Origin: Spinacia oleracea
Taxonomy: Eukaryota; Streptophyta; Magnoliopsida; Caryophyllales; Amaranthaceae
Length of the DNA: 64,000 nt
Direction of reading: 5' to 3'
Assembly (NCBI RefSeq): GCF_020520425.1
Contig: NC_079490.1
Coordinates: 1,178,001 to 1,242,000 of the forward strand
The translations under genes were made by a program, and so were the position numbers. A model generated the notes under the pieces. It ran no database searches. It was not told the DNA's origin and was given only the letters and a program-made list of their open reading frames with translations. Shown piece after piece: positions 1 to 57,113 of the stretch (position 1 is the first letter of the stretch; each line of letters starts with the position of its first letter).

Positions 1-1608
1 ATTTCCCAATAACTTTTTTTGGTTAATGTAATCTCATATTATTGTGCATTTGTATTCTATACAAACAAAATAATGTATGAACTATTTTATACTACTCCTT
101 ATAGAAAACATAAAAAAAATTTGATTAAATAGTTAATATTAATACATGTTACAAAGGGGCCTCCAACTCTCCATAAATTGGTAAACCAATCACATAAATC
201 CAAATAAGAAGATTTAGTACAAAATTACCAAGTTGCTAGTTACTCCTAATTAATCCGACCAGCAAGGCAGCAACTATCCTCACACGTGCCAAAATCGGCC
301 AACAACCTCCCACGTGTGTACCTCGGGTAAATTCAATCTTTTTTTTTACTGCTTTTTACGGTTTCCATTGTAACTGCACTTCCCAATTTTACAGTTTTGC
401 ATTTGTTAATACTTCTGCGTTCTTTTCTATAGTCTTACATTTTTGCAACTCCAACAAAATTCAGGTTCCCAAATGCAATAATTTAATCTTTTTATTTTTT
501 AATTATTTTTTCCTCTTTATGTCTCGTAGATGGTTCTTTATTACGGTTCATGTTAACCGAGCCCAAATCATTTATTACGGTTCATGTTAACCGACCCCAA
601 ATCATTTTGAGAATAAAACTCTGTTGTCGTTTTCTTATTTTTTTGGGAAAACAACAAATCTTCCAAATGCAAAACCTGGTTTTACAGTTACCTCTAGAGT
701 CTTGAACAAATTCCCTGTTTGTTTGAGTTGGTAAGCAACCTTGCTTCTATCCATCCAACTCCACTTTTTACTTCAACAAAGACATAATTTTTTCCCCCTT
801 TTTTGAGGTTTGTATTTGTTAAACCAAACACTACTTTAGCTTTGTAAGTCACAACTAAAATGAAATGCAGATCTGCCTGTTACTTTTTCTTCCTGTAAGT
901 TTGTCATTTTCATGCATTTTCTCTTCATTCCCATCTATAGTTTGTGTTTTTAACAATCATTTCAGAAAACAGAGTTAAAAAAAATCCATCTTTTTTTTGG
1001 CATTTATGCGGGTTTTGGAGAAAAAAAAAACACGCGTGCATACCCTATTTGAAAATCCCGGTTCCGCCACTAGATTGTATGGTTGTTTTTATCTGTTTCT
1101 TTCTTTATGCAATAAGCCATTATCCAATATTTCTACTGTAATCTAACTTTGTTTCTTTTTTCTGTAAAATAATGCAGGTGTTTATGCTGTCTGAAACTCT
1201 GAATCAGACTCTGATTACTGTTTGAGAGTTTGCTTCACTGAAACACTTCACTTTTTTGGTACATTTTATTCAATTACTTTCTTCTTTAATCCCTTTAACC
1301 TTTGATTATCTGCCATTTTTTCCCTTTTGACTGGTGCTGATTTTTTCAGTTTACTTGCCATTTACTCTTAATGATACCATATTGCTGATTCTTAATAGAC
1401 TAAAATCAGAGTTCAATCAAACCAATTCTTCCATAAACAAAAATCCCACATTTTATTCTGCGAAATTGTATACATACAAAGTATATTTTCAAAGTTTTGA
1501 CTAGAATCACATTTCAACCCAATTCTTCCATAAATAAAAATCCCACATTTTATTCTGTGAAACTGTATACATATACAACTATAAAAGTATATTTTCAAAG
1601 TTTTGAAG
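1..1608 (+). promoter_or_regulatory. Upstream and 5' UTR region of the MCTP gene
   Basis: No other gene is visible here. Two exact G-boxes (CACGTG) lie at 283-288 and 311-316. A 34-bp unit is tandemly duplicated at 537-570 and 571-604. A possible 5' UTR intron runs from a GTAAGT donor near 896 to a TGCAG acceptor near 1178. An ~85-bp unit is duplicated at about 1421-1500 and 1518-1607, and the second copy abuts the start codon. The regulatory roles are inferred from motifs only. Confidence 0.45.
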
Positions 1609-4301
1609 ATGAAACCAGCTTCTGCAATGGAGGACTTTGCACTGAAGGAGACTTCTCCTGCAATAGGCGGGACCGGGTTAGCAGGGGAGAAACTGACCTC
1701 GACTTATGACCTTGTTGAGCAAATGCAGTATCTCTATGTCCGTGTAGTTAAGGCAAAGGACCTCCCCGGAAAAGATGTAACAGGAAGTTGTGACCCTTAT
1801 GTAGAAGTAAAGCTAGGAAACTACAAAGGAGCAACTAAGCACTTTGAGAAGAACACTAAACCCGAGTGGAACCGAGTTTTTGCCTTCTCAAAAGAGCGAA
1901 TTCAAGCTTCTATAGTGGAGATTCTGGTAAAGGATAAGGATGTTGTTAAGGACGATTTCTTAGGGAGGGTTATATTCGACCTGAATGAGGTGCCGAAGAG
2001 GGTCCCACCTGATAGCCCTCTCGCACCTCAATGGTACAGGCTCGAGGGGCAAAAGGGGGATAAGGTGAAAGGGGAGCTTATGTTGGCTGTTTGGATGGGG
2101 ACACAAGGTGATGAGGCATTTCCCGAGGCTTGGCATTCTGATGCGGCTTCTGTTGGTGGGGACGCTGTTGGGAATATCCGGTCAAAAGTTTACCTTTCGC
2201 CTAAGCTTTGGTATGTGAGGGTGAATGTCATTGAAGCTCAAGATTTGGTTCCCAACAATAACATAACCCGGTTTCCAGATGTTTATGTTAAGGCAATGCT
2301 TGGAAATCAAGGTTTTAAGACTAAACCATGTCAGGCTAAGACTCTGAACCCAATGTGGAACGAGGACTTGTTGTTTGTAGCCGCCGAGCCATTTGAGGAA
2401 CCCTTGTTCTTGAGTGTGGAAGATAGGGTTGGACCGGGGAAGGAGGAAACCCTAGGAAGTTGTGTTATTCCTTTGCATATTCTTCAAAGAAGGTTTGATC
2501 ATAAACCGGTGAACACACAGTGGTTCAATCTTGAAAAGAAGGGAACTAAGTTTTCTAGCAGAATCCATCTAAGGATCTGTTTGGATGGAGGTTACCATGT
2601 GTTGGATGAATCTACCCATTACAGCAGCGATTTAAGGCCAACCGCCAAGCAAATGTGGAAACCGAGCATTGGAATTCTCGAAGTAGGGATTCTGAGTGCT
2701 CATGGACTTATGCCAATGAAAAACAACAACAAAGATAATAGAGGAACAACTGATGCTTACTGTGTGGCTAAGTATGGCTCAAAATGGGTTCGAACAAGAA
2801 CCATCATTGATAGCTTTCACCCCAGATGGAACGAGCAGTACACTTGGGAGGTTTTCGATCCTTGTACAGTTATAACAATCGGGGTGTTCGACAATTGCCA
2901 TCTTCATGGAAATCTGCATGGAAATAATGGAATAATGAGAGATTCAAGAATTGGGAAGGTTAGAGTAAGGCTTTCAACCCTTGAAACTGATCGAGTTTAT
3001 ACACATTCATATCCTCTCATAGTCTTGCATCCTTCAGGTTAGTGGCGGATACAGGGGGTTTAAGTGGGGTCACGTGACCCCACTTCACACAAAAAAATAC
3101 TCTCCCCATTCTTGAATGCTAGTCCCTTCTGAAATCTAACACAATTCAACTTAAATACACTTGTCACATGAATCTCACCCATGTAATTAAGGGTATAATG
3201 GAGATAAATGTTGGACAAATAAAGGAAAGATTTCAAAAGGGATTAATTAAATAAAAACAACTCAATACGGAAAGATGACTAACATTCAAGAACGGAGGGA
3301 GTACCTAATTTTAGTTAAATTTTCATTTAAAAAAAAAAATACTCCGTATTTAATTTCAGTTAAGTTTTTTTTATATTAATTTTGAAGTACTGACCTCGTT
3401 ACTTACACCTGCTTCAGGTGTAAAGAAGATGGGTGAAGTTCAATTGGCCGTGCGATTTTCCTGCTCATCATGGATCAACATGTTGCATATGTATTCTCAT
3501 CCTTTGTTACCCAAAATGCATTACATTCATCCATTATCTGTAATACAGCTTGATAGCTTGAGACACCAGGCTACTCAAATTGTTTCAATGAGACTCAGTA
3601 GAGCAGAACCTCCTTTGAGAAAAGAGATCGTGGAGTATATGTTAGATGTGGATTCTCATGTGTGGAGTATGAGAAGGAGCAAAGCAAACTTCTTCAGAAT
3701 CATGAATGTTCTGAGTGGAATTATCGCGGTTGGTAAATGGTTCGATCAAATCTGCAACTGGAAAAACCCGATTACCACTATTCTTATTCACATCCTCTTC
3801 ATAATCCTCATTGTTTTTCCCGAACTAATTTTGCCCACGGTTTTTCTCTATCTTTTCTTGATTGGGGTTTGGAACTACCGGTGGAGGCCTAGGCACCCGC
3901 CTCATATGGACACTCGGCTCTCACATGCTGACGTGGCACACCCTGATGAGTTGGACGAAGAGTTTGACACTTTTCCCACTTCTCGGGGGAGTGACATCAT
4001 TCGGATGAGGTATGATAGGGTACGGAGCATAGCGGGTAGAATTCAGACCGTTGTGGGAGACTTGGCTACACAAGGGGAGAGGTTTCAGTCGTTGCTGAGC
4101 TGGCGAGATCCGAGAGCAACGGCGTTGTTTGTTACCTTATGTTTGGTAGCTGCAATTGTGTTGTATATAACTCCTTTCAAAGTGGTCATGCTCTTCTATG
4201 GAATCTACACGCTGAGGCACCCTAGATTCAGGGTGAGGCTTCCTTCTGTACCGATCAATTTCTTCAGAAGGCTACCTGCAAGAACTGACAGCATGCTGTG
4301 A
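1609..4301 (+). CDS. MCTP / FT-interacting-protein-type protein (3 C2 domains + C-terminal membrane region), 2 exons
   Basis: Exons 1609-3037 and 3418-4301 join to 770 codons, the usual length for this family. Three C2 domains lie at roughly residues 38-150, 200-310 and 355-470. They are followed by the plant phosphoribosyltransferase C-terminal region (residues ~600-770) with two hydrophobic segments (PITTILIHILFIILIVFPEL and a second near the C terminus). Family-typical stretches such as SCDPYVEVKLGNYKG and RRSKANFFRIMNVLSG place it with Arabidopsis FTIP1/MCTP3/MCTP4. Those proteins sit at the ER-plasma-membrane contact of plasmodesmata and act in trafficking of cargo such as FT or homeodomain proteins. 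The exact paralogue is not decided here. The start is the ATG at 1609; an in-frame TTG at 1603 is not a plausible plant start. Splicing restores the family-conserved HPSGVKKMGE junction. The intron is TE-derived (see findings). Confidence 0.93.
3040..3411. mobile_element. Degenerate hAT-type MITE forming the MCTP intron
   Basis: The element is flanked by an exact 8-bp direct repeat CTTCAGGT (3032-3039 and 3412-3419). Its left end TAGTGGCGGATACAGG closely matches the hAT-type elements starting at 19336 (CAGTGGCGTATACAGG) and 46443. The right end finishes in CACCTG, comparable to CCCCTG and CACTG in the relatives. The terminal repeat on the right is eroded. It carries a nested Stowaway-like insertion. 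Confidence 0.75.
3098..3303. mobile_element. Stowaway-like MITE nested inside the MCTP intron element
   Basis: TA dinucleotides flank inverted ends related to CTCCCTCCGTTCTTGAATG. The left end is CTCTCCCCATTCTTGAATGC and the right end is the complement, CATTCAAGAACGGAGGGAG. Its position inside the hAT-like element gives the order of insertion: hAT-like first, Stowaway second. Confidence 0.8.
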
Positions 4302-9689: not shown

Positions 9690-12015
9690 ATGGCTGAGCT
9701 CGAGGAAATCGGCCATGATTATGGGTAAGTGCTCTAATTTATAATTCATTATTATTCCATGATTTCCTCTCTGTTTATTTATTGTTAATTTGGGGATTTT
9801 TTGGATATGATTGGATGGTTAATTGAAGGAAATACTGCTTAATTTTGTGTCATTTTGTACGGAAGTATTTTTTAAGGGATTGGTTTGTTTTTAATTGTTG
9901 AATTATATTTGAATTTAATCAGCTTGAATGATATGCTAGAGCTAAGTGTACTTAATTTTGTGGAATATATGATTTTTATTAGCTTAAAGATTGATAATTT
10001 ATAGGGGATTTGTTTCTTTTAATTGTCGAATTTTATTTGAATTTAATCAGCTTGAATTATATGTTAGAGCTAAGTGTACTTAATTTTGTGTAATATATGC
10101 ATTTTATTTATAATGAACAATTATTTGATTTGTTGATCTTTCTTGAATGGTGGAATTTGATTTGAATTATTTTTGGTTGGTAATTTGCAATGGTTGTAGT
10201 TCGGATATAGAAGTTGATGAATTAAGGTGTGGTAACATTGCTGAGAAAGATGTTAGTGATGAAGAGATTGATCCAGAAGAACTCGAAAGACGAATGTGGA
10301 AAGATCGAATTAAGCTTAAGCGGCTTAAGGAGAGAGAAAAGATCGAGGCTCAAAGGGCTGCTGAAAAGCAAAAGCCAAAACAAACGAGTGATCAAGCTCG
10401 GAGAAAGAAAATGTCACGAGCACAAGACGGGATTTTGAAGTACATGTTGAAATTAATGGAGGTTTGCAAAGCGAGAGGTTTTGTGTATGGGATAATTCCC
10501 GAGAAGGGAAAACCGGTTAGCGGTTCATCGGATAATATTAGAGCATGGTGGAAAGAAAAGGTTAGGTTTGATAAGAACGGTCCGGCTGCTATAGCTAAGT
10601 ATGAAGCCGAGTGTTTGGCAATGAGTGAAGGAAATGGGAATGGGAACGGGAATGGAATTGGCCAAAATACCCTTCAAGATTTGCAAGATGCAACTCTCGG
10701 GTCGTTGTTGTCATCGTTAATGCAACATTGTAATCCTCCTCAAAGGAAATTTCCTCTCGAAAAGGGCGTTCCTCCACCGTGGTGGCCTTCGGGAAATGAA
10801 GATTGGTGGGCTAAGTTGGGTTTACCAAAGGGTCAAAGCCCGCCGTATAAGAAACCGCATGATTTGAAAAAGATGTGGAAAGTTGGGGTTTTGACTGCTG
10901 TAATCAAGCATATGTCACCTGATATTGCGAAGATAAGACGGCTTGTAAGGCAATCTAAATGTTTACAAGATAAGATGACTGCTAAGGAGAGTTCGATTTG
11001 GTTAGGGGTTTTAGGTCGAGAAGAATCACTTATCCGGCAGCCTAGCAGTGATAATGGAAACTCAGGTATTACAGGAAGCCCGCCCGGCCCGCGTGGTGGT
11101 AAGAGGAAACCTAATGCTAGTAGCGATAGTGATTATGATGTTGATGGACTCGACGAAGGTGCAGGATCCGTTTCCTCTAAAATGGGTGAACCCGCGGGTG
11201 AACCTGTGGTCAATAAACGCCTTTCTATACGGAATAAGAGCTCAGTTGAGAAACAAAGTAAGAGAAGAAGAAAAGCAAGCTCTAGTGATCAGCAACCCAA
11301 CCCGTCTACAGATGGTAAACAGTTGGCAACTAATGATCAGCAACCTGCACCATCTACAAATGAGAATTTGGTGGATGAAACTGCCGGACCCGGACCCGGA
11401 CCTGAACCCAGGCCCGGACCAGTCGTGGACCATAATAATGCAGATTTGAACGATTTCCAGATGCATGATAACCAACAGGAGAATGACTCTATATTTATTG
11501 AACCCTTGTTGTCTTTAGACAATGATATTTTGGGGCAATTTAGTCATTTCCCTAATGTCCGTCCTCCCCAATTGTTGTCCGGACATAACATGTTTGTTGG
11601 AGGCCAATCATACCACCATCCGAGTGTACAAGATCCCGAGTTACAACACCGCGATTCTTATTACAATCCATCAATTCATCAATACGGGCAAAGGCTTGAT
11701 GAACATAGATTGGAACATAATACCATAAGTAGTGAGCCCCAAACAAGACAAGAAGGTGTTGGAATGCATCTTCCATCACTTAACACAGCTGAAAATGATA
11801 TCAATGGAGGTCACTTGCACCATTATGGTGTTGTTGATGCATTCCAGGACAAGAATAGACCGTTTGACAGTCATCTTGGTTCTTCCTTTAACGGCGGACT
11901 TTCTATAGATTTTGATTTATTTGATAATACTTTCCCTGAAATCGAGGGCTTTGGTTTAGAAGATGATTACTTAGCTGGTGATGACCTTGACATCTTGCAA
12001 TATTGTGGAGCTTAG
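9690..12015 (+). CDS. EIL3: EIN3-family transcription factor, EIL3/SLIM1 type, 2 exons
   Basis: Exon 1 is 9690-9724 (35 nt; donor GTAAGT) and exon 2 is 10200-12015 (acceptor TTGTAG). Together they encode 616 residues beginning [20 protein letters not shown]. Then come the acidic segment [20 protein letters not shown], a basic stretch, and the EIN3 DNA-binding fold with [40 protein letters not shown] and [19 protein letters not shown]. The C-terminal half is low-complexity ([12 protein letters not shown], Gln/Asn/His-rich) with an acidic end. The start of the conserved region matches EIL3/SLIM1 better than EIN3/EIL1. SLIM1 is the central nuclear regulator of sulfur-deficiency responses in Arabidopsis, so that role is inferred by orthology. 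The ORF's upstream ATG at 10147 lies in the intron and should not be used. Confidence 0.93.
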
Positions 12016-19335: not shown

Positions 19336-19848
19336 CAGTGGCGTATACAGGATTTTGAAATAGGGTAGACATAAAAAGTACAATTTTTTTTTAAAAAAGA
19401 TACAATGAAAATGAGAATTTGCGGAGTGCTAATTATAATGTTTACATAAATTTATCAATTTCACCGTTCACTTTATTTTATAAATTCTAAGATTTTAAAG
19501 ATTATACAATATAAATGTATACGGAGTACTCCGTGTTATATAGCAAATAACAACAAAACTTTAAAAATATACGAAGTAGAGATTAAAAAACAAATATGAC
19601 GTGACACCCCCGAAAACAAAAATTGAATTTTAAATACTTGTCAAACTAAAAATAAGGTTTATATATTTAATCTGCAACAAAAACACATGAAGGCAAGATG
19701 CTAGAGTGGTTAATAAGGAAATCTAATTATGTTAATCTCCCAATTGGTCATGGGTTAGACTCCTAGATTGAACAAATTTATGTTTTTTTTTAAAAAAATA
19801 CTCAACCTATTAGAATGAATTTTCTATTACACAGTAGATCCGCCCCTG
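19336..19848. mobile_element. hAT-type nonautonomous element, 513 bp
   Basis: Exact 8-bp duplication ATTGAAAC (19328-19335 and 19849-19856) with ends CAGTGGCGTATACAGG and GTAGATCCGCCCCTG. The interior holds a tRNA-like stretch (GCTAGAGTGGTTAATAAGG and GGTTAGACTCC near 19690-19765). Its left end is the best in-window reference for the MCTP intron element. Confidence 0.85.
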
Positions 19849-27822: not shown

Positions 27823-27913
27823 GAACTATAACTATTTCTATTTTAGCTCACTCTACCAAACCGCAAAAAAACCTCCCTGTCTCTTCTCTTACCTCACCAC
27901 TTTTCCGGCGAAA

Positions 27914-30900
27914 ATGGGACTCACCGACGGCGGTATCGCAACACCCACACTGGACAGAGAAGCACCGGAAATTATCCACCGTGTCTCCGAGGAAGGCGGC
28001 GGTTACACATTCGCACGTATGGTGTCGGCGGCGGCAAGCGACGGCGACGCAACTGCAGCGGAGGTGGCGCGGGAGATTGCCTGGGAGCAGCTCCACAGTG
28101 GACCATGGCACTCAGTTCTTCCTATCTGGAGGGATGCTTATTCAATGGCGTGCCTCCACGTGGCGAAACACCATTTCGCCGGCGGTGACTTCCCGGAGAC
28201 GCTTAAGGTTTTGGATTTAGGGTTGATTATGGGTGGGTCCCTGTTGAGGATTGACTTGGAGAATGCTGTTGAGAAAGTTATGGCGGTTGCTGAGGAGAGA
28301 GAAAAGAGTAATAATAATGTTGGTGGTGATGGTGGGTTGTTGTTTTCTTCGGTTGAATTCAATGAAGATGAGGTGAGGTTCGTGTTTTCATTATTTTACC
28401 CCCTTTTTTTTAATGATCTAATTTTGATTCCAGTTTTTAATGATTCAGTGGTTTTTATTGGTCTGTAATGTATGTTTGATTTCATGTTTATTGGGAAATT
28501 TATGATGGGAAATTTGTAGAATTGAATTTGTAATTAGTGAATGTGTTTGATTGAGCTTCATTAATGAGTTTTCTGAATGATCTAATTTTGATTTCAGTTT
28601 TTAATGATTCAGTGGTTTTTATTGGTATGTAATGTATATTTGATTTCATGTTTCATTATTTGGGAAATTTGTGATGGAATTTTGTAGAATTGAATTTGTA
28701 ATTAGTAAATGTGTTTGATTGAGCTGCATTATTGAGTTTTCATCATGTTTTGGGGTTGAATTTACCTAATTAAAGTACCAATTATAATACTTGGTGTGAT
28801 TTTGATGATTATCTTTTGAGAGGGTTTTGTGTTGGATTTTTTTGAATCAATTTCTGGGTTAAGTGATTTGAATTTGAGAGGAATTGAATTGTATGAAAAC
28901 CAATTAATTCTTGACACGACCACGAGCTAAAACCACGAAAAAGCTCACTTAATTGAGTGCCAAAAAACATGGAGTACTAATCAAAGAAGAACAGGCTGCT
29001 GCACGCATTAGGGAGTTCCATGAAATACTAGATCTAGTAGATAGAAGTGAATGGAAGAAGAGGATCTTTGTGACTTTGTGTACTACCACCATGTATGAAT
29101 TCTTGGTTCACGTAGCCGACTTCATCCTTTTGGTTTAAGGGTCTGTTTTGTTCGACTTATAATGAGATAAGTTCAGATAACACAAGTCATTTAGACCGGA
29201 GCCTAAGGATTTGACATATTTTGTCTCTATAGTTTGGGTCATGAAAACTATCTCATACTTAAACCCTTGTGAAATGTGTGATGGCTAGTGTATAAAAAGG
29301 CGCGCCTAGGCTCTGAGGCGCAAGGCGATTGGAGCCAGTGCCTTTTATTGTCTAGGCGAGGCGCTTTCGATGAGGCGCACCTAAGGCGCAAAAAGGCGCA
29401 CCAAGGCGCACTTTGAGGCGCAAAAAGGCGCAAAAAAGGCGCACCTACCAAGGCACACACCATTTTTTCACTTTTTATTAGGGTGCCTCACTTCAATGAG
29501 GCGCACCGAGGCGCGCCTAAGGCGCTGGGAACCCCAAATCGCCTTGTTGCGCCTTGAGCCTTTTTATACATTGGTGATGGCATTTGCTGATAATAAAAGT
29601 CGGGAAAAGTTTAAATTTGAAGTTTTGTGTGTGTGTTTGCGCGCGCGTGTGTTGTGATTCTGTTTTTTTTGTTGATTAGAGAAACGTAGCTCAATTAGAG
29701 ACTAAAATTAATTGTTGATCATGCCTGGAATGGTAGGTTTTCCAGTTATTACCTACAAAATCACTGTCTTCGAAGCATGTTGCAAGGCGCTCTGAGTTGT
29801 CATTGGAAGGATTCCTTCGTGACTATTATATGTTGGGTTTGCCTGTTATTATCAGTGACTCGATGTCTCATTGGCCAGCTCGAGCTAGATGGAACAACAC
29901 GGATTACTTAAAGAAGGTTGCTGGAGGTCGTACAGTACCTGTCGAGGTGATTAGCTGATGAATTATTTCCTCTCAACTCTATTGATGGGCAAGTATACCT
30001 CTAGAGAACGATTCATTCTTTTAGCTTGTTTTGTTTCTGTTTACTACGTACTTTTTTTGCATTAAATTGGTTTTATGATCTAAATAGGCATTGACTCGTT
30101 GTTGCAATTACTTACTTTTGGTAAATGATGGCCTAAATTTTACCAGAAATGTCCTGTTTAACATCTGTCTTCGTTGCCAATCAACTCTATTGATGGGGAA
30201 GTATACCTCTAGAGAACGATTCATTCTTTTAGCTTGTTTTGTTTCTGTTTTCTACGTACTTGTTTGCATTAAATTGGTTTGATTATCTCAATAGGAATTG
30301 AATCGTTGTTGCAATTACTTACTTTGGGTAAATGATGGCCTAAATTTGCTGTCTCTCATTATGCTAAATTTGCTGACTCCCAACTCCCAGAAATTTCCTG
30401 TTTAAGACAAAGACATCTGGCTTCATTGCCTATTATTTGCATATACTCTTGTATTTAGGATTTTGGCCTTTGAATTTTCAGCAGTTATGCTAGTTCAAGT
30501 GTTGATTGTGTTCACTTTGTTGTGATCTGAAAATTGTTTATGTATTACAGATTAAGGAATAAGTAGGTTACAATCTGTACACAAACTAAGCTTGTTCTGG
30601 AATTTGTTTGATTATCTAAACAGGCATTGAGTCGTTGTTGCAATTACTTACTTTGGGTAAATGATGGCCTAAATTTTCCCGGAAATGTCCTGTTTAACCT
30701 CTGTCTTTGTTGCAAATCATTTGTGTACATTCTTGTATTTAGGACACCTTGGCCTTTGAATTTGCTCTTTTATGCTAGTTGAAGTGTTGATGAACTATGT
30801 TCACTTTGTGGCGCTCTGAATTTTTTTATGTATTTACAGATTAAGGAATAAGTAGGTTACAATCTGTACACACACTAAACTTGTTATGGAACATTTAATT

Positions 30901-34986: not shown

Positions 34987-35928
34987 TTATGCCCTCAGAC
35001 AACCATACCCTCCACGACGCGTTACCGCTTCCACGATCTTTTTCGAGTATCCATACACGAATCCTTTTGTTAGACACAGTAAAAACAATGCTAACGAGTC
35101 CTCTATAGAACATAAACACATACCTATAATACCATTCCAAACGACATGATCTGGTAGTTTAAGAAGGTTAATTTCTTCCACATCGAAATCAAACGAGACA
35201 ATACGATTTTGTTGGTGTGTGTACGAACCTTTATAATAATAACGAGGACCAAATTCAAACCAGTATGCAGCCTTTCCTACGAAAACAACATCATGAAACC
35301 GTAGTAGTGGTTTTGGTACATGCCACTTTGGGTTCATAAACTCCGTGTTGTTTTTTACCTTCCAACAGTGATCACGAAGTGAATAAACAGCCATTGAATT
35401 ATACGTAAATGCAACCACCTTATAGTCATTAGTAGAAGGGGCAAATCCCACAACATAGTTAACATAAATAGCAACATCATTAACATAAGTATCCCTAATT
35501 GGGCAACATGGAAGAAGAAGGGACTTTCTTATATTCCATAGTCTATTCCCATCAAATGTTGTCAATAACAACCCTTTACAAATCCCAACAATTAAGCAAC
35601 GACGTCGTTTAGGAAGATGAATTTCAATCTTTTCACCAATTCGGTGAAACGTGTTGATGCGATGAAAACGAACACAAATAGATTGTTTCGCATTGTGACT
35701 TTCCACACATAATACAAGATTGTTATTTTTACGAGGATTGTTTTGGTAGAGATTAAGATGCATATAAGTAAATACAGATGAATCAATAATTGAACACCAA
35801 TATTTACAGACACACCTGAATCTTAGCAGGGTTTTTACAGACAATCTGGCCAATATCTCTTGACATAAGTCTGGCGGCAGATACTTGAGGTGGTCGTCTG
35901 ATGTTTCAAGTTTGTTTAGATTTGCCAT
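34987..35928 (-). CDS. F-box protein (F-box-associated type), C-terminal frameshift, possible pseudogene
   Basis: A 313-residue intronless ORF starts at 35928. An F-box lies at residues ~15-53 (YLPPDLCQEILARLSVKTLL, then RFRCVCKYWCSIIDS). It is followed by an F-box-associated region with GICKGLLL, VVGFAPSTNDYKVVAF and VSFDFDVEEI. Such proteins recruit substrates to SCF ubiquitin ligases through SKP1. After LALFLLCLT the frame runs into unrelated sequence. The expected family ending (RIRVWILEKDRG, WRVWLSEGISVEFWEL) continues in another frame at about 34880-35080. A single-base indel near 35070 explains this; no intron of workable size bridges it. The protein is either truncated or the gene is decaying. 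Confidence 0.75.
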   Translation of the reverse strand: MANLNKLETSDDHLKYLPPDLCQEILARLSVKTLLRFRCVCKYWCSIIDSSVFTYMHLNLYQNNPRKNNNLVLCVESHNAKQSICVRFHRINTFHRIGEKIEIHLPKRRRCLIVGICKGLLLTTFDGNRLWNIRKSLLLPCCPIRDTYVNDVAIYVNYVVGFAPSTNDYKVVAFTYNSMAVYSLRDHCWKVKNNTEFMNPKWHVPKPLLRFHDVVFVGKAAYWFEFGPRYYYKGSYTHQQNRIVSFDFDVEEINLLKLPDHVVWNGIIGMCLCSIEDSLALFLLCLTKGFVYGYSKKIVEAVTRRGGYGCLRA

Positions 35929-37640
35929 AACTATTGTAAATCAATTGTCAAAAAAACAAAAACAAAAAAAACAATTGTAAATCTTGGCCAATTTCAATAT
36001 TGCTCTCGTAATTAACCCTAAATTGTCTCTTTGTTTTGCCCTAATATTTATATACCCGTCTTTTTGTGTTAGTCTATCACGGGCCGCAACTATTCACGAG
36101 CAAATACAAGAGAATTACTGCAATAAACAACATGTAAACTCCCGCGGGAGATTAGTCCACTCGCCGAAGGCGGTGGGAACTCCTCGTAGTAGAACCAAAA
36201 AAAATAAACAACGTGCAAAAAAAAAAAAAAAAAAAAAAGTGACAAAAGTTTACTCCCTCCCATTCTAGACCTGATCAATTATAGCCCGATCCACTGACGC
36301 AACCCGAAAAATACGGGTTTAGGCATCCTCAAAACACGTTTTTAGGCCAATAATCGATCCCGGCCCAAAAAGCTTGTACTAAACTAAGGAGAATATAATA
36401 TTAATGAAGGATAATATAACTTAACAACTTGAATATAACTTGGTTATATAATTGGTGTATACAATAAACTATAACATAACTTTAATAGACATAGGAATCT
36501 AACATTAGATTCCTAAACTAACGCAACTCTAATTTCCTAAACATACTAGAACCCTCGATCTTTACACCATTACTCTAACAAGATTCTTAATTAAAAACAA
36601 TTATTAGGCCCGACCCACACCAATCCCACTTGTAACCTACCGAGTTGGGTTGTGCCGATTTCTTTTTAAATAAGCGGCCCAAGCTCACTAGTCGGGCTGG
36701 ATTGTCATGTTTAAGCCTAATTTTTAATTAAACGTACTCTTTCGTGTCCGACCGTGCCGTATCGTGCGTAATCGTGCGTTTTTTTTTTAAAAAAAAAAAC
36801 GGCCTAGGCCTGACTACGACCCACAAGTCACAACTTCGTGTTTGTGAAGGTCATGTTTTTTTCGTATTACGGCACGGCCCCATATTTAAGGGGGGACGTT
36901 AAGAACCTAAAAGAACGGAGGGAGTATATAGTATACGAAGTACCATGTAGTGGTGCACCCACAAATGAAAAAGCAAACAGATTAAATAGTAATGCAAAAG
37001 CCATAATATGGGGGTGGCCGGTGGGTTGTCAATATGATGACAAGCCACTAAGTGCTAGTATATTGAAGGGGAAAAAATACTCATATTACCAAACACTAAA
37101 AAGTTATGTCAAACTCTATGTACAACTTTCTTGATGTAATTTAAGGTGTGATTAATTGATTATAACATATATACTTAACAAAAAAGTTCCCAAATCTGGG
37201 AAAAAGTTTGTAAAGAAACAAAAGTACTAAAGTATTCTTCTAATCAAATGTACTTAACATGGTACAAATGAAGAGGAATGAGGATGCATGATTATGCCTT
37301 TCCTAAAGGGAAAAGAACTCACCACTTTATATTAACAATAACACGACAAATTTTAGCACATACCACGTATATTGTCTTTTGTACAGATGATGTATTAACC
37401 TGATAGTTAAGACTGCGAAATTGTGTACAACAAGTCACATTGTTCAAATCACCCTTTTCTTATAAAAGAAACGAAAATAGAATGCAAGAAAGAATTCAAC
37501 TTCATTTACTTTACAACTACTAAAGAATTATACAAGAAAACTTAACAAAATCTACTACTCCGTACTTGTTACTTGCATCACAATCAAACCCTAAGTTTTC
37601 CTCAATCAACATACAGAGTAGTACTACGTATATTTTGATT
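35929..37640. other. Intergenic stretch with degenerate repeats
   Basis: Contains an A-rich run at 36215-36238, a truncated TAGACCTGATCAA-type element (from 36266) and GC-rich GGCCC/CGTGCCG pieces (36600-36900) resembling the TAAAGATGG-ended family. No coding region is supported. Confidence 0.45.
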
Positions 37641-37921: not shown

Positions 37922-40900
37922 TTATACTACAGATTTGTACATGCAAAGAACCTTACACCTTAAAATCTTATCCTGAACATAAAACCCTGGCATAACCATT
38001 ACCTTAACCCGACTTGGACCGTGTCCCTTCTGTTTATCAGTAACAATATCTTCCATATAACAAGCATCAAACGATCTGTTTTCTTCGACCCTCAAAATAT
38101 TCAACGCCGGAAAAAATGAAAACGCGAGCAAATGAAGCAACCATATACATTTTGCTGATACAAAAAACGACTGCAGTAACGTTTCAGACCACGGTCTAGT
38201 CCAATTCAGAGTCATAATAATGCAACTCATTTTCTGATCACAAAACTTACTGAATTCTTCACTGTAATACTTTGTTCCTTTCTTCAGAACTTCATTCCAA
38301 CTCAGGTTTCTCAAAGAAGCAAATGACTGAAACTGTGCTTGTCTTTGTTGCTGAGGATCAAGCAGTTTCTGAATCCCATTTTTCTGAAACACACAGTTTT
38401 CGAAATCCTGGTAAAACGCCTGGTTTACTATCGCCTCAATGTGGTAGAAAACTGATTTTGAGTACCTTGAATTGATGGAAAGTTTGTAGGGTTTTAGGAT
38501 TAGGTTTAAGTTTTGGGTAAGTTGTTCATCAGACTCTTCTATTTGTTCAATCATTGTTTTGCAGAACTGTTTTACTGATAATCTTGCTTCTGACACAATT
38601 TGTAAGAAACCTTCCACCATTACTTCTTTACTCACAGGCATCATACTGTCATCCTCATCACCGGCTTTTTCTCTTTTCACCTTATTTTCACTTATTTCAG
38701 GTCTGATAAGATGACAAAATAAGTGTCAGTAAGTTCAGATAAGATAACATAAGATAAGATAAAATAAGACAAAAATAAGGATCAATAAGTTCAGATAAGA
38801 TAACATAAGATATGTTCAAATAAGATAAAATAAGGGTCAATAAGTTCAAAATGGCAGATTGGCCAAAATGAGAAGCAGGGATGTAATAGATAGTTATGAT
38901 GTAGTATATTTTGATCAACCCCCGGGTTTTGTTATGGACGTTTTGTTGGAGGATAAGCCTCCCTAGTTTTAGCCTTGTAACGGTTAAACTTTTTATTAAT
39001 TGAAGTTACGTGTTTGCATCAAAATAAAATAAAATTTAAATGACACATTTTTTTACTTCCAATAAGGGTCTATAAGCTAAGATAAGATAAGTTCAGGTAA
39101 ATTCAGATAAGTTCAAATAAGATAAGATAAGTTCAAAAGGCACCTTTTCGATACTGCTTGTCTTAAAGCCTTTTTTAGCTCCTCGCAGTAAGACTCCAAA
39201 TTCTCGAGCTTCTTCCTCAACTCCCCAAACGAAGATCTCATCTCCGTAACCTCCATTAAGGCCGCTTCCTTCTTCTGATTCGCGTCAATCAACTCCTTTT
39301 TCAAGGTTTCTATTGATACACTACTTCCATAATCCTTAAGGACTTGAGAGACTTCTTCAGACTGATCATCTGTTCGTAGTGGTGAACTGTTTCCGGTCTT
39401 TTGCCTCCTCTTGAATAACCACGAAAGAATCATCCCTACACAAAATTATGCATTATTAGAGACGGATACTATAAACATCTCAAACTTGTACGGATTCCTA
39501 AAAGGGAGATGATAAAGGCCCAAGTTGCGACAAATAACATGTGTCATAATCCTACGTGTCACTCTTTTAATGGCACCAAAAGGGTGCCATGTAGACCGCG
39601 ACTTATCAAATTATTTTTATAATCAACGCCATATTTTACTATGAAAAAAAATTAAAATAAGGTAATCCATAAAAAAGAAAAAAGGAAATAATTTTTATAA
39701 AGGCAGTAAATATATATTTTTTCATTTATTTTGTAAATTATAAATTAAAAAATAGAAATTCCAATCTAATAATATATTTTTATGCAATTTAAATAACTAG
39801 TTACGACAAAAATTAGCAAGTTGCCACCTTTATCACTTTGCTTACTAAAATTTTGTTTCTAAATTAAAATTGAGATGGAATTGTATAAGGAGTTTTAAAA
39901 ACTCTGTCTCAAATTTGTAATGGATTTATCAAAACGAAAATGATAAAGGTCGCAACATGCGACCTTTAAGCCGTGTCACAATGATGACATGGCATGCTTA
40001 TGTGTCATGATTTAAATTGGAAATTAAAATATTTAACTTATATTTTTTATTATACATGTTATAAAAAAAGGTTGGAAAATCTTAATATTCTATTTTTTTC
40101 CTTTTTTATATCGACTACCTTATATACATATTTTCGTAGTAGAAATATTGAATTAATAGTAAAAATATTATGATGACGCATAGCCTACGTGGCGCTTATA
40201 TGTATCAATTAAACTGCGACACGTAAGATTGCGACAACTAAATGTTGTCGCAACTTGCGACCTTTATCATCGTCAATTAAATTCCGCCTCATAAAAATTC
40301 CGAGCACCCTATATTCGTCTCAAATCCGTCTTTAATCACCATTTTAAGACGGATTTAGACTATTCAGTGACGAAATCCCTCATCTCTATAAAATGATTAT
40401 TTTGCAGTAGTGCATATATATATATATATATATACCTCGAGATTTCTTATGTGGCGCGGTCATAGTAGCATGAGAATCCGTTAATGGCACCACCATGTTA
40501 GAGTACTTGCTACTCTTGCTATCATTATAATCAATGCTGCTAATTGTTGCAGGCTTACAATTGTTGCAAGATGATACTGATCTCAAATCTCCTAAACTGT
40601 TTCTTCTCCTCGATTTAACCCCTTCGTTTGTGCACGAGCTAGCCACGGATTTACAGTCATCTGTTGGACAAACATGGTGATTGTTGTTGTCTAATCCTGT
40701 TGATAAACCACTTTGATTACCTCTAATTTCATCCCAATTTTCGCTAATTGTTTGGTTTGTTATTTGCATATGTCCATACCCTGGTAAAGGCTCATCTTCA
40801 TAACTCTGTCACATGGTATAATATATAGTTTAGCATCTAGATAATCATTCCATTAACTTGAACTATAAGGAAGGGAAATAATAAATAAAATGACTTGAAT

Positions 40901-46442: not shown

Positions 46443-46618
46443 CAGGGGCGGATCTTGGGTGTGGCTGGGGTGGGCCTGGCCCCCCCGGCCGGAAAATTTT
46501 GTAGTGTATTTTTAGTTACGCCCCCCCTAAAATTTGTATATAATTGTATAATTACATAGTATATTGCTTAATTTTTTCTACCGGCCCCCCTCGTAAAACC
46601 GTTCAAGGTCCGCCACTG
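46443..46618. mobile_element. hAT-type MITE, 176 bp
   Basis: Exact 8-bp duplication TAAGTAGC (46435-46442 and 46619-46626); ends CAGGGGCGGATCTTGGG and GGTCCGCCACTG. Same family as 19336-19848. The interior has strings of C and G. Confidence 0.88.

Positions 46619-56489: not shown

Positions 56490-57113
<624 letters not shown>

What the first reader, a model, noticed from the sequence alone, without database searches (positions are those of the whole stretch)
3032..3419. A coding intron born from a transposon: the 8-bp target duplication supplies both splice sites of the MCTP gene
The intron of this MCTP gene is bounded by identical copies of CTTCAGGT. The target contains AG|GT. The left copy plus the first bases of the element (TAGT) make the donor AG|GTTAGT, and the right copy makes the acceptor CTTCAG|G. 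Splicing removes the element plus exactly one copy of the duplication, restoring HPS-G-VKKMGE without a single base change. The element's left end matches hAT-type MITEs elsewhere in the window (19336, 46443), and a Stowaway MITE later landed inside it. To my knowledge most FTIP/MCTP genes have no coding intron, so this looks like a recent intron gain caught with its target duplication intact.
Basis: partly seen in the sequence, partly recalled or inferred. Interest (0 to 1): 0.92.

Follow-up and report, generated by a model that had tools for sequence, protein, structure and literature searches.

The report
Transposon insertion acting as plant intron
In a plant MCTP gene, a small jumping element sits in the coding sequence between two copies of the 8 bases it duplicated on landing, and those copies read as ready-made splice sites, so the cell can probably cut the element out of the RNA as a new intron and still make the normal protein; it is a clean example of an already proposed way to make introns.

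Summary
CTTCAGGT lies at 3032-3039 and 3412-3419, and the repeat is exactly 8 bp. A hAT-type end (TAGTGGCGGA) starts at 3040, and a Stowaway-type MITE (3098-3303) is nested inside. Removing GT(3038)...AG(3417), 380 nt, rejoins a 770-aa plant MCTP frame (1609-3037 + 3418-4301). Retention gives a stop at 3040. With recalled splice-site weights the donor is the best of 148 GTs in the gene and the acceptor second of 184 AGs; a CTGAC branch-point motif lies 24 nt upstream.

Most likely this is a spliced intron created by a hAT-type insertion at AG|GT in a coding exon (0.78).

No RNA and no orthologue could be examined. The mechanism is already in print (AGGT insertion model; an intron made by maize Ds). 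It is a new member of a known kind. It is still useful: a 3,325-genome survey reported no Introner families in land plants, so such gains there would be single events.

The parts
1609..3037 (+). MCTP coding exon 1: three Pfam C2 domains, ending ...HPS-G
3032..3039 (+). left copy of the 8-bp duplication CTTCAGGT; holds exon end CAG and donor GT
3038..3417 (+). proposed 380-nt intron GTTAGT...TTCAG, 66.8% A+T against 55.3% in the CDS
3040..3097 (+). left part of a hAT-type element, TAGTGGCGGATACAGG...; includes a 24-bp perfect palindrome at 3062-3085
3098..3303 (+). nested Stowaway-type MITE, TA at both borders, 27-nt arms 23/27 complementary
3304..3411 (+). right part of the element; no recognisable hAT terminus
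3390..3394 (+). CTGAC branch-point motif, A at 3393, 24 nt before the end of the AG; first AG downstream is the proposed acceptor
3403..3423 (+). predicted hairpin TTACACCTG-CTT-CAGGTGTAA that contains the 3' splice site
3412..3419 (+). right copy of CTTCAGGT; holds acceptor CAG and the first two exon bases GT
3418..4301 (+). MCTP coding exon 2, (G)VKKMGE...RTDSML*, with Pfam PRT_C over its full length 1-156

Best explanation
A non-autonomous hAT-type element inserted into the coding exon of a previously uninterrupted plant MCTP gene at CTTCAGGT and duplicated it (inferred from shown anatomy). The left copy gives CAG|GT and the element's first bases TAGT complete the donor CAG|GTTAGT; the element brings a CTGAC branch-point motif; the right copy gives the acceptor CTTCAG|G (all shown as sequence). 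The spliceosome removes the element plus one copy of the duplication, so the mRNA is the ancestral one (inferred, not observed). A Stowaway MITE later inserted into the element, inside the intron, where it does no coding harm (order inferred from nesting).
For: Exact 8-bp duplication, the hAT length, directly abutting a hAT-type left terminus. Two complete hAT-type elements with 8-bp duplications in the same window. Splicing at these sites restores a 770-aa frame with three C2 domains and full-length PRT_C; retention stops at once. The donor ranks 1 of 148 GTs in the gene and 10 of 6,918 in the window; the acceptor 2 of 184 AGs in the gene and 49 of 6,829 in the window, the best AG in the gene being the left copy's own CAG (weights recalled). 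CTGAC 24 nt upstream with no AG between. The next AGs downstream (3424, 3427) would shift the frame (frame by arithmetic). Both exons are open: with an assumed indel rate, a neutral gene would stay intact with probability 0.09 at 1% divergence and 0.009 at 2%. The same kind of event is described in a review (PMC3443670, section 7).
Against: No RNA. No orthologue seen (searches found none, in collections that are not plant collections). The right hAT terminus is absent. The 3' splice site lies in a predicted 9-bp, 3-nt-loop hairpin, -16.5 kcal/mol for 53 nt, 4 of 200 shuffles as good, which could hamper splicing. Splice-site weights were recalled, not trained on this species. The intact-frame argument fails if the insertion is very young (probability 0.31 at 0.5%). 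The Pfam C2 model ends before the junction and does not test it: joined 75.2 bits, exon 1 alone 76.0. Some seed-plant MCTP genes do have introns.
Confidence: 0.78

Rival explanations
1. The insertion is a loss-of-function or low-function allele or assembly haplotype: the element is not spliced efficiently, and the intact second exon merely shows that the insertion is young.
For: No RNA evidence; the 3' splice site is in a predicted hairpin; the frame would survive 0.5% neutral divergence with probability 0.31.
Against: Strong donor, acceptor and branch-point motif at the exact positions that restore the frame; the nested Stowaway and the missing right terminus suggest that some time has passed.
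Confidence: 0.13
2. Intron gain by repair of a staggered double-strand break: an 8-nt staggered break was filled with captured genomic DNA that contained a hAT end and a Stowaway, leaving the 8-bp repeat.
For: The right end is not a recognisable hAT terminus; the 9-bp inverted repeat across the right junction could be a snap-back repair trace: 50 such perfect 9-bp arms (loop 0-6) exist in the 64 kb, 21 with at least 3 G+C, overlapping ones counted apart.
Against: The captured piece would have to begin exactly at a hAT terminal base, and the repeat would have to have exactly the hAT length.
Confidence: 0.06
3. An older intron was already at this position, and the element inserted near its donor, with later loss of the rest of the old intron.
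For: The intronless share of MCTP genes is 0.64-1.00 per seed-plant species apart from grape, so introns do occur.
Against: The right copy of the duplication would not be expected exactly at the 3' splice junction; needs an extra, exactly placed deletion.
Confidence: 0.03

Closest known systems
Transposon-insertion intron gain at AGGT proto-splice sites (review PMC3443670, section 7 read whole, other passages seen)
   Same: Insertion into AGGT, duplication of the target, AG|GT donor and AG|G acceptor, coding sequence unchanged after splicing.
   Different: Here the duplication is 8 bp, the element end supplies donor +3 to +6, and a second MITE is nested; RNA not seen.
Intron made by the maize Ds element (Giroux et al. 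1994; title seen in a reference list; paper not held; Ds as a hAT element with 8-bp duplications is recalled)
   Same: A hAT-type element in a coding exon of a plant gene removed as an intron.
   Different: Different family and gene; which sites Ds used was not read here.
Introners (PMC9860276, passages seen)
   Same: DNA transposons that become introns on insertion; in Florenciella both splice sites are co-opted from the insertion site; in other families the duplication gives one of them.
   Different: Introners are families of similar introns in many genes; the survey reported them in only two groups of animals and land plants, both animals. No other intron copy of this element is known here.
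Intron gain by tandem duplication of AGGT-bearing exon sequence (PMC3443670 passages; potato RdRp case PMC4974935, listing and start of abstract only)
   Same: Duplicated AGGT gives both splice sites.
   Different: There the intron body is duplicated exon sequence; here it is transposon sequence.

Membership tests
Transposon-insertion intron gain at AGGT | Direct duplication containing AGGT at both junctions | tested here: met
   CTTCAGGT 3032-3039 and 3412-3419
Transposon-insertion intron gain at AGGT | Removal of element plus one copy restores the coding frame | tested here: met
   770-aa frame, stop only at 4299-4301
Transposon-insertion intron gain at AGGT | Splicing seen in RNA | not testable with these tools
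   no RNA data
Transposon-insertion intron gain at AGGT | Empty site with one copy in relatives | tested here: inconclusive
   no relative found in viral or prokaryote collections; no plant collection on hand
hAT transposons (defining features recalled) | 8-bp target duplication | tested here: met
   exactly 8 bp
hAT transposons (defining features recalled) | hAT-type terminus at the left end | tested here: met
   TAGTGGCGGA, like 19336 and 46443
hAT transposons (defining features recalled) | Inverted hAT-type terminus at the right end | tested here: not met
   reads CAGGTGTAAG from the right; subterminal likeness to the left end is weak: 0 of 2,000 shuffles reach 27 with the A-run included, but 193 of 18,154 window 35-mers reach the score of 19 without it
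hAT transposons (defining features recalled) | Mobilised by a hAT transposase | not testable with these tools
   too short to encode one; no genome held
Stowaway MITEs (3098-3303) | TA duplication and CTCCCTCCRTTC-type inverted ends | tested here: met
   TA at both borders; right end perfect, left end 3 of 12 bases off the right end
Introners | Many similar copies acting as introns across the genome | not tested
   only the 64-kb window is available; blastn of the pieces found no second copy of the whole element there
Plant MCTP/FTIP | Several C2 domains followed by PRT_C | tested here: met
   3 C2 stretches, PRT_C 1-156/156

The most novel reading that the evidence does not exclude
hAT-type ends are pre-adapted to make introns: their conserved start (Y-A-G-T/G) placed after a target ending in AGGT completes a good 5' splice site (AG|GTYAGT) from either orientation, so hAT insertions at AGGT should become introns more often than other transposons and should have seeded single, family-independent intron gains in flowering plants. 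In one search (recalled weights) TAGT ranks 13, CAGT 29, TAGG 37 and CAGG 56 of 256 possible continuations; against a hAT-only claim, GAGA (a Mutator-like start, recalled) ranks 19.
Probability: 0.25. Interest if true: 0.65.

Novelty: new member of a known kind. Interest (0 to 1): 0.52.

Why it matters
Where new introns come from is an open question, and land plants had no Introner families in the survey of PMC9860276 (passages). The review PMC3443670 (section 7) says it is not understood why inserted transposons are spliced or whether some transposons preferentially cause intron gain. A plant gene with the target duplication still readable, the element recognisable at one end and the coding frame restored is a case in which each part of the AGGT model can be tested, and it points to a checkable rule about hAT-type ends.

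Tried and rejected
Whole-genome search: no genome is held for this window. Relatives: exon-2 protein against viral contigs (16 stretches matched a pattern, none confirmed) and genome contigs (68 matched, none confirmed); a degenerate DNA pattern for GVKKMGE gave 0 stretches in both. The left-end 17-mer gave 1 viral contig; I printed 244 bases around it, judged it a chance match and did not follow it. PDB sequences: 82 hits, the 60 shown align within query residues 1-322 and do not reach the junction. Pfam does not test the junction; NCBIfam gave nothing for the junction fragment. The search for the peptide SGVKKMGE in papers gave 0 papers, so conservation of HPSGVKKMGE in other plants is recalled, not shown.

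Dating by the nested Stowaway was considered and dropped as weak: its arms match at 23 of 27, inside the 15-26 of 27 of the 16 candidate pairs printed, a list that includes chance and overlapping pairs. A claim that the right end is simply the left end's mirror with the outer 12 nt deleted was held back: the first control supported it (0 of 2,000 shuffles), the stricter one only at about 1% (193 of 18,154; several of the controls that score higher are other hAT-type ends). The 9-bp palindrome across the right junction is an equally uncertain hint of copying from the flank.

Literature: 10 of 10 searches used. None of the papers listed reported this intron, but the listings were mostly capped and the library lacks most subscription papers.

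Full report
What is there. The gene at 1609-4301 (+) encodes a plant MCTP: three C2 domains in the first open part and a full-length PRT_C domain in the second. The two parts are separated by 380 nt that begin GTTAGT at 3038 and end TTCAG at 3417. Joined at 3037|3418 they form one 770-aa frame from ATG 1609 to TGA 4299-4301. Without splicing, translation stops at TAG 3040-3042, straight after HPSG.

The duplication. CTTCAGGT occurs at 3032-3039 and 3412-3419 and the identity does not extend further on either side. By itself this is modest evidence: splice sites share CAG|G anyway, and with recalled base frequencies I estimate about 5 introns in 10,000 would show the same 8-bp match in register by chance. 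Elsewhere in the window 500 of 11,315 octamers with four G+C recur 100-700 nt downstream.

The element. What turns the repeat into a target duplication is the next base: a hAT-type terminus, TAGTGGCGGA, begins at 3040. The window holds two complete hAT-type elements, 19336-19848 and 46443-46618, each with its own exact 8-bp duplication and inverted hAT-type ends, and a solo end at 1072 on the minus strand that matches the finding's left end best. Of 12 hAT-like termini scanned with up to one mismatch, 6 have the preceding octamer again within about 1.5 kb: four belong to the two complete elements, one is this site, and one (54680) appears to be chance.

The right end is the weak point. Read inwards it is CAGGTGTAAGTAACGAGG..., not a hAT terminus. 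It has some likeness to the inside of the left end (0 of 2,000 shuffles as good with the A-run included), but a stricter comparison against window 35-mers gives 193 of 18,154 as good. It also forms a perfect 9-bp inverted repeat, TTACACCTG-CTT-CAGGTGTAA, with the flanking duplication and exon; the window has 50 perfect 9-bp arms with loops of 0-6 nt, 21 with at least 3 G+C, overlapping ones counted apart. Two histories fit: loss of the outer dozen bases of the terminus, perhaps helped by a CTG microhomology, or replacement by a short copy of the flank during repair. I cannot decide, so I call the element hAT-type by its left end and duplication, not a proven hAT member.

The nested MITE. 3098-3303 has TA at both borders and 27-nt arms of which 23 match. 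It is Stowaway-type. It must be younger than the element that contains it, if the outer parts are one element.

Can it be spliced? With recalled plant weights the donor is the best of 148 GTs in the gene and 10th of 6,918 in the window on both strands; the acceptor is second of 184 AGs in the gene and 49th of 6,829 in the window. The best AG in the gene is the left copy's own CAG, as expected if both copies are the same site. CTGAC lies 24 nt before the end of the AG, with no AG between. The intron is richer in A+T (66.8%) than the coding sequence (55.3%). The folded pre-mRNA is unusually stable (-110.4 kcal/mol, z -4.93, 0 of 100 shuffles as good), mainly through the MITE and the 24-bp palindrome; this could bring the ends together. 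Against easy splicing, the acceptor itself is inside the 9-bp hairpin.

Is the gene alive? Both exons are open and the domains score well. A neutral gene of this length would stay free of disabling changes with probability 0.31 at 0.5% divergence, 0.09 at 1%, 0.009 at 2% (indel rate assumed). So either splicing has kept the gene functional or the insertion is very young. The intact duplication does not show youth: in the left copy CTTCAG is coding and GT is the donor; in the right copy CTTCAG is the acceptor and GT is coding.

How it works, and what is inferred. Shown: the anatomy, the frame, the signals. Inferred: that the spliceosome uses them, that the gene was uninterrupted before, and the order of the two insertions. 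The donor is shared work: CAG|GT from the target and TAGT from the element; the branch-point motif is the element's; CTTCAG|G is the target's. In one search the hAT-like continuations TAGT, CAGT, TAGG and CAGG rank 13, 29, 37 and 56 of 256 after CAG|GT; GAGA, a Mutator-like start, ranks 19, so the advantage is not proven to be special to hAT.

What is known. The review PMC3443670 (section 7 read whole; passages) describes exactly this model, insertion into AGGT with both copies used as splice sites, and its Table 1 lists 35 transposon-insertion events in Oryza, Drosophila, Oikopleura and Zea, including the maize Ds intron of Giroux et al. 1994 (reference title only; paper not held). PMC9860276 (passages) describes Introners, including a case (Florenciella) that co-opts both splice sites from the insertion site, and reports Introners in only two groups among 835 animal and land-plant genomes of 3,325, both animals. 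MCTP genes are mostly intronless in seed plants (passages of PMC7325108, and PMC9347167), but not always. So the mechanism is known, and this is a new and unusually legible member.

Limits. No RNA, no orthologue, no genome. Species not determined. Splice-site weights and hAT and Stowaway definitions are recalled.

Noticed in passing
window 1042-1072, minus strand: A solo hAT-type end (TAGTGGCGGAACCGGG...) in the 5' leader of the same MCTP gene, inside what reads as a 5'-UTR intron (GTAAGT at 895 to AG ending 1177, own reading); no partner 8-bp copy found.
   Followed up: partly
window 19336-19848 and 46443-46618: Two complete hAT-type non-autonomous elements of 513 and 176 bp with exact 8-bp duplications ATTGAAAC and TAAGTAGC.
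   Followed up: yes
window 3062-3085: A perfect 24-bp palindrome AAGTGGGGTCACGTGACCCCACTT just inside the element's left end.
   Followed up: no
window 3403-3423: A perfect 9-bp inverted repeat with a 3-nt loop spans the right junction and buries the 3' splice site; origin undecided.
   Followed up: partly
window 16035-51637: Many further Stowaway-like terminal pairs (one search printed 16 candidates in all, some chance or overlapping).
   Followed up: partly
window 10147-12015 (+), 27824-28468 (+), 34987-35940 (-), 37922-38725 (-), 56490-57113 (-): Other genes by Pfam: EIN3-like transcription factor, KDM8-like N-terminal ARM protein, F-box protein, GIL1/IRKI C-terminal domain, core histone. 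No tRNA and no Rfam match at gathering score in the window.
   Followed up: no
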